A program made the position numbers and the translations under genes. The notes below the pieces were generated by a model. It ran no database searches and was not told the origin of the DNA. It saw only the letters and a list, made by a program, of their open reading frames with translations. DNA of 64,000 nt from Gemmatimonas groenlandica (GTDB lineage Bacteria > Gemmatimonadota > Gemmatimonadetes > Gemmatimonadales > Gemmatimonadaceae), in NCBI RefSeq assembly GCF_013004105.1, contig NZ_CP053085.1, forward strand, positions 4,092,001 to 4,156,000, in the 5' to 3' direction. Positions 11,949-16,726 of the stretch are shown in pieces. Every line of letters begins with the position of its first letter. The first letter of the stretch is position 1.

Positions 11949-12048
11949 TCGATGCGGAGCAGAGAACGATGACGTCAAAGGTGGCTGGTGGTGAGTCCGT
12001 GCGGTCCGTCGCGGGCAACGACGCCGTTTCACTCGTGACCTAACTGTT

Positions 12049-12061
12049 GGAGGACATGATC
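12049..12061 (+). promoter_or_regulatory. Strong Shine-Dalgarno deciding the start at 12062
   Basis: GGAGGA at 12049-12054 is 7 nt from the ATG at 12062. It would be too close to the ATG at 12056, so the 12062 start is preferred. Confidence 0.7.
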
Positions 12062-12667
12062 ATGCCAACGCTTTACTCGCCATCCGCGCGTGCGCTTCAG
12101 GATCGTTTCGACTCTCGCCGACTTGCGGATCGCCTCGAGAAAGTGAAGGTGCACGACTCGATCACCGTCGACGATCGCGCGTTCATCGAACAGCAGGACA
12201 TGTGCTTCATGGCGACGGTCGATCCGCAGGGCCAGCCCACCTGTTCGTACAAGGGTGGCGCCCCGGGATTTGTCGTCGTGCTAGACGAACACACGCTTGC
12301 GATGCCGAACTATGACGGCAACGGGATGTACCTCTCGATGGGGAACGTCGAAGCCACGGAGCGTGTGGGGCTGCTTTTCATCGACTTTGTGGCGCAGCGT
12401 CGCATCCGCGTCGAGGGCGCGGCCGAGTTGCGCCACGATGATGCGCTGCTGCGTCGGTATCCCGGTGCTCAATTCATGCTCTACCTGCACGTCGAGCGGG
12501 TGTATCCGAATTGCGGACGATACATTCACCAGATGGCGCGCGTGGAACCGTCGGCCTTCGTTCCCGACGAGCACGGTGCCGCGCCGGTGCCCGGCTGGAA
12601 GCGCACGGACTGGGCGCGCGACGTACTTCCGGCACCCACAACACCGCCACGAGCGGAAGACCGGTAG
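12062..12667 (+). CDS. Pyridoxamine 5'-phosphate oxidase-like FMN-binding protein
   Basis: The 201-residue protein has a split-barrel flavin-binding fold. 'FIEQQDMCFMATVDPQGQPT' and 'SYKGGAPGFVVVLDEHTLAM' are the classic first strands of the PNPOx-like family. They are followed by 'YDGNGMYLSMGNVEATERVG' (phosphate-binding region) and 'RIRVEGAAEL'. The C-terminal 'CGRYIHQM' is typical of the general-stress or 'pyridoxamine 5-phosphate oxidase family' subgroup that uses FMN to reduce unknown substrates. It is not the vitamin B6 enzyme PdxH, whose C-terminal motif is missing. The next gene starts 9 bp downstream. Confidence 0.88.
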   Translation: MPTLYSPSARALQDRFDSRRLADRLEKVKVHDSITVDDRAFIEQQDMCFMATVDPQGQPTCSYKGGAPGFVVVLDEHTLAMPNYDGNGMYLSMGNVEATERVGLLFIDFVAQRRIRVEGAAELRHDDALLRRYPGAQFMLYLHVERVYPNCGRYIHQMARVEPSAFVPDEHGAAPVPGWKRTDWARDVLPAPTTPPRAEDR

Positions 12668-12676
12668 CCTCCTGAA

Positions 12677-14659
12677 ATGATTCGTCCTTTCCTGATCGCC
12701 CTCGCCGCTTTGGCGTTATCGGGCCGACCCATTACGCCGCCGCTGCGCGCCGCGCTTCCCCTCGCGCAGCTGGAGGACTATCGCCGGCCCGCCGGGACGC
12801 GCGTCGCGGACACGCTCAACGCATCCTTCAGTATTCGCGAGGTGCGCTGGCGACCCGAGGGGGCGAGTGGCGCCGAGCTCAGCGCCTTTGCGTTCGTCGA
12901 AGACGGGAAGCTGGGCAAGGTACCCGGGCCATTGCTGCGCGCCCCTGCCGGCACCACGATGCGGGTGACGCTGCACAACACGCTCGGCGTGCAGCTCATC
13001 GTCTTTGGGTTGCACGATCGCGCGGCTGGCCGCGGCATGGATTCCGTTACCCTCGCGCCCGGCGCACACGTGACCGTCGCGTTTCTGGCGTCGACCGCCG
13101 GCACCTACTACTACTGGGCGCGAGTCCGCCCAACGGTGCAGCACCCGACCGCACCGGTGCCGGATGACTGGCCGAGTGGAGAGAAGGGAGAGGGACCGTT
13201 GGTGGGTGCACTGGTCGTGGACGCTGCCGGCACCGTGCCGCCGCGTGGCGAGCGGATTCTGCTGATCAGCCGTTGGCTCGACGACGACGATGCGCGGGTC
13301 CATCACGATCCCGCGTTCAGGATGATGATCAACGGCGCGAGCTGGCCTCACACGGAGCGGCTGGGCTACACCGTGGGTGACACCGTGCGGTGGCGCATCA
13401 TCAACGCCAACGCTGCGGCGCATCCGCTGCATCTGCATGGGTTCTACTTCACGGTCACGGCGCGCGGTGACGGCCAGCTCGACACGCTGTATGCCGACGG
13501 GCAGCAACGCCGCGTCGTGACGGAATTGCTCCCGCTCAACGGCACGATGGCGATGACGTGGGTGCCGGAACGTCCCGGCAACTGGTTGTTCCATTGTCAT
13601 CTCGTGCGGCACATGGCGTTGGTGCAGAGTATCGCGCCGCGCATCGCGCCGCGCGGCGGTTCGGACGAGTCCGCGCACACGGCGTCGTCGGTGCATCACG
13701 CCGAAGAAAACATGGCGGGTTTGGTGATGGGCGTGCAGGTCACCCCGCGCGCTGGCGCGACGGCCGCGCGAGCGCTGGCGTTGGCCTCGGGCCGCAATCC
13801 TGGTGCGCCGGCGGTGCGGTCGCTTCGCGTGGTCGCGACGCAGCGGGCGAATGTGTTTGGCTCGTCGCCGGGGCATTCGTTCGTGTGGCAGCGCGGCAGC
13901 GTGGCGCCCGCGCGCGATTCGATGCAGTTCCCCGGCTCCACGCTCGTGCTGCATCGTGGAGAGCCGACGGCGATCACGGTGGTGAATGGTCTCTCCTCGC
14001 CGCTCGCGGTGCACTGGCATGGCATGGAAATCGAGAGCTGGTTCGATGGCGTGGGCGGATGGAGTGGTGCCGGTCGCAGTGTGCGGCCTCCCATCGCACC
14101 GGGGGACTCATTCGTGGTGCGACTGACCGCCGCCCGCGCCGGCACCTTCATCTACCATACGCACGACGAAGCCGGCAGCGAACTCTCGACGGGATTGTAC
14201 GGCGCGCTGATCGTGGAGGAGCCCAACGCGCCGCGCGATACGACGCGTGATCACGTGATCGTGATGGGGATACTGGGCCATGCCGCGACCGGGTCGTTGG
14301 CGATCAATGGACGCACTGACGGAGCGCCGCTTACGCTCTCACCGGGAACGCATCGGCTCCGGTTTGTCAGCATACCGGTCGACGAGCAGATTCGCGTCGC
14401 GTTCCTGCGGGATTCGACGGTGCAGCGGTGGCGTTCCCTTGCCACCGATGGCGCCGAATTGCCGGCGGCGCAGCAAGTACAGAGCGCAGCGCGGCGCACG
14501 GTAAGTGCGGGGCAGACGTTCGACGTCGAGGTCATGATCCCCGCCGATGCGCCGGCCAACTACGCTCTGCGCTTCACGACCGTCTGGTATCCGACTGATG
14601 TGCGTGGAGCGCAACCCGCGCCGGTACTGCGCGTGCCGATTGTCGTGCGAGAGCCGTGA
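12677..14659 (+). CDS. Multicopper oxidase with permuted copper motifs
   Basis: This 660-residue exported protein is built from four cupredoxin-like domains. The copper motifs occur in an unusual order: HPLHLH (His249, 252, 254) and HCHLVRH (His306, Cys307, His308, His312) come first, and HWHG (His446, His448) and HTH (His494, His496) come afterwards. In ordinary laccases HWHG and HxH precede the other two. The first domain has only a degenerate 'FGLHDR' (His113) where HWHG would stand, and the fourth has no copper ligands. The residue at the axial position of the type 1 copper (Cys307+10) is Gln317 rather than Met or Leu. All ten usual His plus the Cys are present, so oxidase activity is plausible. 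The substrate is unknown. Its stop overlaps the next start (GTGA). Confidence 0.88.
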   Translation: MIRPFLIALAALALSGRPITPPLRAALPLAQLEDYRRPAGTRVADTLNASFSIREVRWRPEGASGAELSAFAFVEDGKLGKVPGPLLRAPAGTTMRVTLHNTLGVQLIVFGLHDRAAGRGMDSVTLAPGAHVTVAFLASTAGTYYYWARVRPTVQHPTAPVPDDWPSGEKGEGPLVGALVVDAAGTVPPRGERILLISRWLDDDDARVHHDPAFRMMINGASWPHTERLGYTVGDTVRWRIINANAAAHPLHLHGFYFTVTARGDGQLDTLYADGQQRRVVTELLPLNGTMAMTWVPERPGNWLFHCHLVRHMALVQSIAPRIAPRGGSDESAHTASSVHHAEENMAGLVMGVQVTPRAGATAARALALASGRNPGAPAVRSLRVVATQRANVFGSSPGHSFVWQRGSVAPARDSMQFPGSTLVLHRGEPTAITVVNGLSSPLAVHWHGMEIESWFDGVGGWSGAGRSVRPPIAPGDSFVVRLTAARAGTFIYHTHDEAGSELSTGLYGALIVEEPNAPRDTTRDHVIVMGILGHAATGSLAINGRTDGAPLTLSPGTHRLRFVSIPVDEQIRVAFLRDSTVQRWRSLATDGAELPAAQQVQSAARRTVSAGQTFDVEVMIPADAPANYALRFTTVWYPTDVRGAQPAPVLRVPIVVREP

Positions 14660-15843
14660 CGGTGATGTCGGCACCGCGACGATCTCCGCCGCCGGCGGTG
14701 CGCGTCGACGCCGTAGACGTGGTTCGCGGCATCATCATGATCGTGATGGCGCTCGACCACACCCGGGACTTTTTCGGCATGCCCGGGGCACAGCCGACCA
14801 ACCTGGCGACGACGACGGTCGCGCTGTTCGCCACGCGCTGGATCACGTACTTCTGTGCGCCCGTCTTCTTCCTGCTGACCGGCGTTGGTGCCAGACTCTC
14901 GCTCGGCAAGAAGACCAAGGGTGAACTGACGCGATTCCTGCTCACGCGCGGGATCTGGCTGATTGTCGTCGAGCTGGTGGTCGCGCGGTGTCTGGCGTAC
15001 CAGTTCAACGTGGACTATCGCGTCACCATGCTGTTGGTGCTATGGGCGCTCGGCTGGGCGATGATCGCGTTGGCCGCGCTGATTCGGCTTCCGGTTCGCG
15101 CGATTCTCGCGGTGGGGCTGCTCATGATCGTGGGGCACAACCTGCTGGATGGAGTGCAGCTCGCGAGCGCGATGTGGACGATCCTGCACGTGCCGGGATT
15201 TCTGGTGAACAGACCAGACTTCACGGTTTTTGTCGCCTATCCCCTGATTCCGTGGATTGGTGTGACGGCGGTCGGATATTGCTTGGGATGGGTCTACGAC
15301 TGGGAGCCGGACCGTCGCCGCATGTTTCTGGTGCGCCTAGGTGTCGCGCTGACAGCGGCGTTCGTCGCGCTCCGATGGCTCAATGGGTACGGTGACGCGG
15401 TGCGATGGAGTGTGCAACCGACAGTGATCTTCACCGCGCTGTCGTTTCTGAACACATCCAAGTATCCACCGTCGCTGCTGTTCCTGCTGATGACGCTTGG
15501 CCCTGCGTTGTTGCTGCTGCGGGCGGCGGATCACGCCACGCCGACCTGGCTGCGGCCAGCCCTGGTGATCGGGCGCGTGCCACTGTTCTACTATCTGCTG
15601 CACTTCATGCTGATTCATGCGCTCGCCGTCATTCTGTGTATTGCGCGATACGGTTCGGCCCATTGGATGTTCGCGTCCCCCGATCTTGGCAATTATCCAT
15701 TTACCGCGCCACCGGGCTGGGGATACGCATTGCCCGTCGTGTACGTCGTGTGGGCGGCCGTCGTGCTGGTGATGTATCCGTTGTGCCGATGGTTCGCGGC
15801 CGTGAAGCAGCGACGCCACGACGTGTGGCTGAGCTACCTGTAG
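14656..15843 (+). CDS. DUF1624-like polytopic membrane protein, acyltransferase-related
   Basis: The 395-residue protein has about ten membrane segments. Its N-terminal 'VDAVDVVRGIIMIVMALDHT' followed by 'RDFFG' is the signature of the DUF1624/heparan-alpha-glucosaminide N-acetyltransferase-like family. 'PVFFLLTGVGARLS' and 'FLLTRGIWLIVVELVV' support this. These proteins sit in the inner membrane and are thought to move acetyl groups across it, but this family is largely uncharacterised. The GTG at 14656 overlaps the multicopper oxidase stop by 4 nt; the ATG at 14665 is an alternative start. Coupling suggests co-expression with the oxidase, though no shared pathway is known. Confidence 0.85.
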   Translation: MTVMSAPRRSPPPAVRVDAVDVVRGIIMIVMALDHTRDFFGMPGAQPTNLATTTVALFATRWITYFCAPVFFLLTGVGARLSLGKKTKGELTRFLLTRGIWLIVVELVVARCLAYQFNVDYRVTMLLVLWALGWAMIALAALIRLPVRAILAVGLLMIVGHNLLDGVQLASAMWTILHVPGFLVNRPDFTVFVAYPLIPWIGVTAVGYCLGWVYDWEPDRRRMFLVRLGVALTAAFVALRWLNGYGDAVRWSVQPTVIFTALSFLNTSKYPPSLLFLLMTLGPALLLLRAADHATPTWLRPALVIGRVPLFYYLLHFMLIHALAVILCIARYGSAHWMFASPDLGNYPFTAPPGWGYALPVVYVVWAAVVLVMYPLCRWFAAVKQRRHDVWLSYL

Positions 15844-15886: not shown

Positions 15887-16726
15887 GTGAGCTATATCGC
15901 CAAGACTTTCAACGTGATGATCGCGTCGCCGGGGGATGTCGCCTCGGAGCGGGCGATCGTGCGCGATGTCGTGTACGAATGGAACGCGGTGCATTCGAGC
16001 ATCCGCAAGATCGTGCTGCTGCCGATCGGCTGGGAATCACATGCCTCACCGGAGATGGGGGCGACGGCACAGGACATCATCAACCATCAGGTGCTGCAGA
16101 AATGCGACTTGCTGATCGGCGTGTTCTGGACGCGCATCGGCACCGCGACGGACGACTACTCGAGCGGCACCGTGGAAGAGATCGAACGCCACATCGATGC
16201 CGGTCGTCCAGCCATGCTGTACTTCTCGAGTCAGCCGGTGGCGCTCGACACGGTCGACATGGCGCAGGTGGAGAAGCTGAAAGAGTTCAAGGCATCGTGC
16301 CGGACACGGGGCTTGTACGAGGGGTACGACAGCCATTCAGACTTCAAGGCCACGCTCTATCACCACCTGCAGCTGAAGGTGAATGAGCATCCGCTGTTCC
16401 GGCTCGAAGCGTCGCTGGAGCACGGCGACGTCGTCGAATCGACGACGGAACTCCCGCGGCTCTCCCCGGAAGCGCGCACGCTGTTGAAGGAAGCGAGCAT
16501 GGATCCCCAAGGGATGATCATGCATCTGCGTTTCGGTGGCGGGGCGGAGCTGCAGGCGAACGGCAACAACCTGCTGACGTCGAACGACCGGCGCGACGTG
16601 GCGAAGTGGGAAGAGTCGTTGGAGGAGCTGGTGCGCCTGGAGCTGATCCTCGCGCGCGGAGAGGCGCGCGAGGTGTATGAGGTGTCCAATCTCGGGTATC
16701 AGATCGCGGACATGATCACGTTGTAG
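15887..16726 (+). CDS. DUF4062 (TIR-like fold) domain protein
   Basis: The 279-residue cytoplasmic protein opens with 'FNVMIASPGDVASERAIVRD', the SPGDVxxER signature of DUF4062. It continues with 'LPIGWESHASPEMG', 'QDIINHQVLQKCDLLIGVFW', 'TRIGTATDDYSSGTVEEIER' and 'GRPAMLYFSS', which match the rest of the domain (residues ~6-125). The C-terminal ~130 residues look helical and are not recognised. DUF4062 is related in fold to TIR and nucleoside deoxyribosyltransferase domains and is often found on signalling or suspected immune proteins. The GTG start at 15887 is supported by GAGGAG at 15873-15878, 8 nt upstream. It lies 43 bp after the DUF1624-like gene. A defence role is possible but unproven. 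Confidence 0.8.
   Translation: MSYIAKTFNVMIASPGDVASERAIVRDVVYEWNAVHSSIRKIVLLPIGWESHASPEMGATAQDIINHQVLQKCDLLIGVFWTRIGTATDDYSSGTVEEIERHIDAGRPAMLYFSSQPVALDTVDMAQVEKLKEFKASCRTRGLYEGYDSHSDFKATLYHHLQLKVNEHPLFRLEASLEHGDVVESTTELPRLSPEARTLLKEASMDPQGMIMHLRFGGGAELQANGNNLLTSNDRRDVAKWEESLEELVRLELILARGEAREVYEVSNLGYQIADMITL

What the first reader, a model, noticed from the sequence alone, without database searches (positions are those of the whole stretch)
12677..14659. Multicopper oxidase whose copper motifs are in permuted order
HxxHxH and HCHxxxH come before HWHG and HTH, the opposite of laccases, and the first domain has lost its own motif. The trinuclear site would have to be built from the second and third domains in reverse chain order. 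The axial position of type 1 copper is Gln317, as in stellacyanin-like proteins, which would lower the redox potential.
Basis: partly seen in the sequence, partly recalled or inferred. Interest (0 to 1): 0.6.

Follow-up and report, generated by a model that had tools for sequence, protein, structure and literature searches.

The report
Four-domain multicopper oxidase, reversed copper motifs
This gene encodes a secreted copper enzyme made of two joined copies of a small two-domain oxidase, each copy having lost the half of the copper site that the other kept; the reversed motif order is known from larger (six-domain) oxidases, but I found no description of a four-domain version, which here turns out to be a common family in one bacterial phylum.

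Summary
The 660-aa ORF carries HPLHLHG and HCHLVRH before HWHG and HTH. All 11 predicted copper ligands (10 His, 1 Cys) are invariant in the relatives I aligned, and the order is the same in all of them. The protein has four cupredoxin domains, not three. Profile comparison assigns them, in order, to classes D1-D2-D1-D2: two tandem two-domain (type-B 2dMCO-like) units. Unit 1 lost its D1 half-site and unit 2 lost its D2 sites. The trinuclear cluster would then form between domains 2 and 3, which in a two-domain trimer is the interface between neighbouring subunits, here placed in one chain. That placement and motif order are already published for six-domain MCOs (MnxG, algal Fox1). A four-domain form is not in the literature I could search, yet 117 of 395 Gemmatimonadota genomes have it, often in 2-3 copies. 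The Gln317 axial-ligand claim fails: position C+10 is variable and lies in an inserted His-rich loop; the invariant M-x-G-L after the loop places Leu349 (or Met346) at the axial position. The structure model is too weak in domain 2 and the linker to prove the domain 2/3 contact. Function in vivo is unknown; no gene neighbour is conserved.

The parts
12677..14659 (+). Multicopper oxidase gene, 660 aa (P0001), four cupredoxin domains
12677..12751 (+). Probable Sec signal peptide (MIRPFLIALAALALSG...), read by eye, no predictor run
   Evidence: sequence
12758..13225 (+). Domain 1 (res 28-183): D1-class cupredoxin without copper ligands; HWHG replaced by FGLHDRAA, HxH by YYYWAR
13247..13747 (+). 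Domain 2 (res 191-357): D2-class cupredoxin with T1 copper and four His of the trinuclear cluster
13421..13441 (+). HPLHLHG (res 249-255): T1 His249, cluster His252 and His254
   Evidence: invariant 36/36
13592..13612 (+). HCHLVRH (res 306-312): cluster His306 and His308, T1 Cys307 and His312
   Evidence: invariant 36/36
13613..13711 (+). Inserted loop (res 313-345) between T1 His312 and the last strand; 24-41 aa in the family, His-rich (10.4% H against 3.7% overall); contains the variable Gln317
13712..13741 (+). M346-A-G348-L349-VMGVQV last strand of domain 2; M-x-G-L in 36/36; Leu349 at the aligned axial T1 position
13817..14224 (+). Domain 3 (res 381-516): D1-class cupredoxin with the other four His of the trinuclear cluster
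14012..14023 (+). HWHG (res 446-449): cluster His446 and His448
14156..14164 (+). HTH (res 494-496): cluster His494 and His496
14237..14650 (+). Domain 4 (res 521-658): D2-class cupredoxin that lost T1 and cluster ligands

Best explanation
It is a secreted four-domain multicopper oxidase that arose by joining two copies of a type-B two-domain MCO unit (D1-D2) head to tail. In a two-domain trimer each trinuclear cluster is made by D2 of one subunit and D1 of the next. After fusion the cluster between unit 1's D2 and unit 2's D1 lies within one chain and was kept; the sites in the outer domains (unit 1 D1, unit 2 D2) were lost. T1 copper in domain 2 (His249, Cys307, His312, probable axial Leu349 with a His-rich loop beside it) takes electrons one at a time from a reductant and passes them through the Cys-His path to the cluster held by domains 2 and 3, which reduces O2 to water. 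Shown: motif order, invariance, domain classes, tandem homology. Inferred: that domains 2 and 3 pack in cis, that copper is bound, and oxidase activity. The substrate is unknown (metal ion or phenol).
For: Unit 1 (36-358) aligns end to end with a two-domain MCO profile (hhalign E 4.8e-34) and unit 2 aligns with the same profile (2.7e-27); a single 2dMCO hits P0001 twice, at 65-312 and 417-617. Unit 1 against unit 2: E 8.9e-18; D1~D3 1.2e-11, D2~D4 2.3e-9, while D1~D4 is only 1.6e-4. Domain classes against 2d and 3d references: D1 matches D1s (2.6e-13), D2 matches D2/D3s (2e-19), D3 matches D1s (2.8e-23), D4 matches D2s (2.8e-8). All ligands invariant in 36 members, fixed order. The model aligns by Foldseek along most of its length to six-domain rings: factor V, ceruloplasmin and MnxG 9bxa (E 6e-20, TMq 0.51); unit 1 matches two-domain MCO 3gdc at Z 24.4 and unit 2 matches SufI at Z 21.7. 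Published six-domain MnxG/Fox proteins have the cluster between domains 2 and 3; type-B trimer geometry is given in PMC13151041.
Against: Four domains cannot close the six-domain ring of a trimer, so the fold must be open or oligomeric. The domain-class test used few reference sequences. No copper or activity data.
Confidence: 0.75

Rival explanations
1. The cluster forms in trans: domain 2 of one chain pairs with domain 3 of another chain in a homo-oligomer, as in two-domain MCOs.
For: Two-domain relatives build the cluster between subunits; the connection between the domain cores is long (77-89 residues from the end of domain 2 to HWHG), so both arrangements are reachable.
Against: Covalent joining of the two halves in chain order D2-D3 reproduces the six-domain proteins, where the cluster lies between domains 2 and 3 of one chain; in-trans pairing would not explain why the outer half-sites were lost in every member.
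Confidence: 0.17
2. It is a circularly permuted three-domain laccase (order D2-D3-D1-D2 or similar), as the word 'permuted' suggests.
For: Domains 3-4 also match D1-D2 of three-domain laccases.
Against: Domain 1 is D1-class (E 2.6e-13 to Nostoc D1, 3.1e-12 to Peribacillus D1), not D2-class (0.0011 to L051 D2, 1.5e-5 to Peribacillus D2); unit 1 aligns end to end with a two-domain MCO.
Confidence: 0.06
3. It is a copper-binding or electron-transfer protein or pseudo-enzyme that does not reduce O2.
For: No experimental data; domains 1 and 4 are already copper-less; structural relatives such as factor V lost all copper sites.
Against: All ten His and the Cys are invariant across 36 members sharing about 37-80% identity, as expected for a selected catalytic site.
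Confidence: 0.06
4. One reading: Gln317 axial, stellacyanin-like, low potential.
For: Gln is the commonest residue at C+10 (15/36).
Against: The position is variable within a variable-length loop; the invariant residues lie after the loop (M-x-G-L, 36/36), and the profile alignment puts this strand, including G348-L349, on the last strand of the two-domain MCOs.
Confidence: 0.1

Closest known systems
Type-B two-domain multicopper oxidases (2dMCO, e.g. SLAC, CjMCO; here Nostoc, Deinococcus and Rhizobium plasmid proteins)
   Same: Same D1-D2 unit; half-cluster in D1, T1 plus half-cluster in D2; cluster made by D2 of one unit and D1 of the next
   Different: Two units are joined in one chain; the first D1 and the second D2 lost all copper ligands; one T1 and one cluster per chain; long His-rich loop before the axial residue (2dMCO relatives have a shorter one)
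MnxG-type bacterial and Fox1-type algal six-domain MCOs
   Same: Cluster between domains 2 and 3, T1 in domain 2 (the only T1 in the bacterial ones), hence the same motif order
   Different: Six domains, over 1200 aa in the bacterial ones; the window protein has four domains in 660 aa; no direct sequence comparison with MnxG was made
Three-domain laccases, CueO, CopA, ascorbate oxidase
   Same: Same ligand set and motifs; domains 3-4 resemble their D1-D2, domain 2 resembles their D3
   Different: Opposite motif order; an additional N-terminal D1-class domain
Ceruloplasmin, factor V and factor VIII
   Same: Model aligns along chains of cupredoxin domains
   Different: Six domains; in ceruloplasmin the cluster lies between domains 1 and 6 with three T1 sites; eukaryotic

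Membership tests
Multicopper oxidase superfamily | Pfam Cu-oxidase_2 and Cu-oxidase_3 domains above cut-off | tested here: met
   85.6 bits (cut-off 20.4) and 97.5 bits (cut-off 21)
Multicopper oxidase superfamily | Ten His and one Cys of the T1 and trinuclear sites | tested here: met
   All present and invariant
Multicopper oxidase superfamily | Copper content and four-electron O2 reduction | not testable with these tools
   needs purified protein
Three-domain laccase | Order HWHG, HxH, HxxHxH, HCHxxxH in three domains | tested here: not met
   Reverse order, four domains
Type-B two-domain MCO | D1-D2 unit homologous to 2dMCO | tested here: met
   Both units match, E 4.8e-34 and 2.7e-27
Type-B two-domain MCO | Two cupredoxin domains, with half-cluster in the first and T1 plus half-cluster in the second | tested here: not met
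   Four domains; domain 1 and domain 4 empty
MnxG/Fox-type six-domain MCO | T1 in domain 2 and cluster between domains 2 and 3 (by motif position) | tested here: met
   Motif positions; definition from PMC3600357
MnxG/Fox-type six-domain MCO | Six cupredoxin domains, over 800 aa | tested here: not met
   660 aa, four domains; several relatives are bounded stop to stop at 632-661 codons
CopA, CueO and other NCBIfam equivalogs | Score above curated cut-off | tested here: not met
   copper_res_A 102.6 bits against 478.95; CueO 55.8 against 525
Gemmatimonadota four-domain MCO (as described here) | HxxHxHG, HCHxxxH, M-x-G-L, HWHG, HxH in this order in D1-D2-D1-D2 | tested here: met
   36 of 36 aligned members (one truncated); D1-D2-D1-D2 class tested on the family profile

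The most novel reading that the evidence does not exclude
An undescribed four-domain class of multicopper oxidase: a covalent dimer of two-domain units with complementary loss of half-sites, working as an open (incomplete) ring with its T1 site and His-rich loop exposed, and representing a step between the two-domain trimers and the six-domain MnxG/ceruloplasmin rings.
Probability: 0.5. Interest if true: 0.6.

Novelty: new variant of a known kind. Interest (0 to 1): 0.47.

Why it matters
MCOs are described as having two, three or six cupredoxin domains (PMC13151041), and schemes for their evolution go from two to six domains through hypothetical ancestors (PMC3600357). A widespread four-domain form with visible tandem homology would be a real protein between these, would show how half-sites are shed in a complementary way after fusion, and offers a small single-chain model for the MnxG-type placement of the cluster.

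Tried and rejected
A first structure model with 6 sequences was poor (mean pLDDT 53.5); adding a two-domain MCO and laccase pieces from viral contigs raised it to 62, still too weak for the domain 2/3 contact, and coordinates could not be measured. Viral-contig scans with the family profile found no relative. One hhalign run printed a stale file and is disregarded; one search replaces it. Circular permutation of a laccase was rejected by domain class. Assembly or gene-fusion artefact rejected: the same intact architecture occurs in many independent genomes. Gene neighbourhood as a clue to function: no recurring neighbour seen, by eye, among the 21 loci examined; upstream and downstream genes differ even in close orthologues. 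Literature search for a four-domain MCO found none, but only open-licence papers are held. MnxG did not appear among the listed sequence hits in the PDB, so no direct sequence comparison was made.

Full report
What is there. The ORF at 12677-14659 (+) encodes 660 aa with a Sec-like N-terminus. Pfam finds Cu-oxidase_2 (the laccase C-terminal domain) at 216-313 and Cu-oxidase_3 (the laccase N-terminal domain) at 417-517, reversed relative to laccases. The copper motifs are HPLHLHG (249-255), HCHLVRH (306-312), HWHG (446-449) and HTH (494-496). No NCBIfam MCO equivalog reaches its cut-off.

Is it more than chance? The same genome holds two paralogues at 44% and 42% identity. In the phylum, 117 of 395 genomes have a match at E below 1e-30, most of the listed matches covering nearly the full length. 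I aligned 36 members. All ten His and the Cys are invariant (36/36, or 35/35 where one contig is truncated), and every complete member has one copy of each motif in the same order. Several members are bounded by stops at 632-661 codons, so the protein is not a piece of a six-domain protein.

Four domains, two units. The second model (mean pLDDT 62) shows four beta-sandwich regions, about 28-183, 191-357, 381-516 and 521-658. A two-domain MCO from Nostoc matches P0001 twice by BLAST, 65-312 and 417-617. With profiles, residues 36-358 align with the two-domain MCO end to end (E 4.8e-34) and residues 380-655 align again (2.7e-27). The two units are homologous to each other (E 8.9e-18), D1 with D3 (1.2e-11) and D2 with D4 (2.3e-9), whereas D1 with D4 is weak (1.6e-4). 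Against separate domains of two- and three-domain MCOs, domain 1 is D1-class, domain 2 is D2/D3-class, domain 3 is D1-class and domain 4 is D2-class. So the order by ancestry is D1-D2-D1-D2. This contradicts a permuted laccase, which would need domain 1 to be of D2 class. In the alignment the HW of HWHG is a two-residue gap in domain 1, and YHxH became YYWAR. Whether the two units come from duplication, from fusion of two genes, or from a six-domain protein that lost two domains is not decided.

How it most likely works. In type-B two-domain trimers the cluster is made by domain 1 of one subunit and domain 2 of its neighbour (PMC13151041). Joining two units end to end makes that pair (domain 2 and domain 3) part of one chain. 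This is where the intact motifs are; the outer domains are empty. The same placement (T1 in domain 2, cluster between domains 2 and 3) is published for bacterial MnxG-type and algal Fox six-domain MCOs (PMC3600357). The model aligns along its length with six-domain chains including ceruloplasmin, factor V and MnxG (9bxa), and unit 1 alone matches two-domain MCOs with Z 24. This is consistent with a partial ring, but the model is poor in 308-349 and 361-379, and the domain 2/3 contact was not measured. In-cis assembly and oxidase chemistry are therefore inference; in-trans assembly remains possible.

The axial residue. C+10 is Gln317 in the window protein but Q in only 15 of 36, otherwise A, L, T, S, N, V or G. 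It lies in an insert of 24-41 residues, rich in His (10.4% against 3.7% overall), between T1 His312 and the last strand. The last strand begins with an M-x-G-L motif kept in 36 of 36. The profile alignment puts it on the last strand of two-domain MCOs, and from general knowledge of MCOs (Gly-Met in CueO and SLAC, Gly-Phe in fungal laccases) the residue after this Gly is the axial one, so Leu349 is the best candidate, with Met346 second. A Leu would give a higher potential than Met; in B. aclada laccase L499M lowered it by 140 mV (PMC4220974, abstract).

Function. The gene sits between a PNPOx-fold gene (ends 9 bp upstream of the start) and a HGSNAT-like membrane acyltransferase gene that overlaps its stop codon, but its close orthologues have other neighbours, and 21 loci gave no recurring neighbour. 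The substrate cannot be named; the His-rich loop next to the T1 site would suit a metal ion substrate or copper handling, which is speculation.

Known or new. The reversed order and the domain 2/3 cluster are known from six-domain proteins; the two-domain unit is known; the combination in four domains was not found in the searchable literature, and a 2026 paper lists only two, three and six domains. I rate it a new variant of a known kind. Spread outside Gemmatimonadota was not properly tested: the plasmid collection gave one full-length match, on a Gemmatirosa plasmid, and the genome scan used patterns that reach close relatives only.

Noticed in passing
12047-12667 and L010 flank: A PNPOx-fold gene lies immediately upstream of the MCO; in the 73%-identical orthologue (L010) a different PNPOx-like sequence lies immediately downstream (Pfam E 1.3e-5, below cut-off). 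Could be chance.
   Followed up: partly
L016, L018, L026 (C-terminal part of the ORF): Three family members appear to carry an extra C-terminal region of about 150-200 aa; the one tested (L016) has no Pfam match.
   Followed up: partly
14656-15843: HGSNAT_cat-type membrane acyltransferase gene whose GTG start overlaps the MCO stop codon; not retained beside close orthologues.
   Followed up: partly
15887-16726: DUF4062-like protein (Pfam match just below cut-off) in this ordinary metabolic context.
   Followed up: no
L039, L042 (plasmids): Two-domain MCOs closely related to each other occur beside, or fused to, DUF4396 membrane proteins on plasmids of different phyla (Nostoc, Rhizobium).
   Followed up: no
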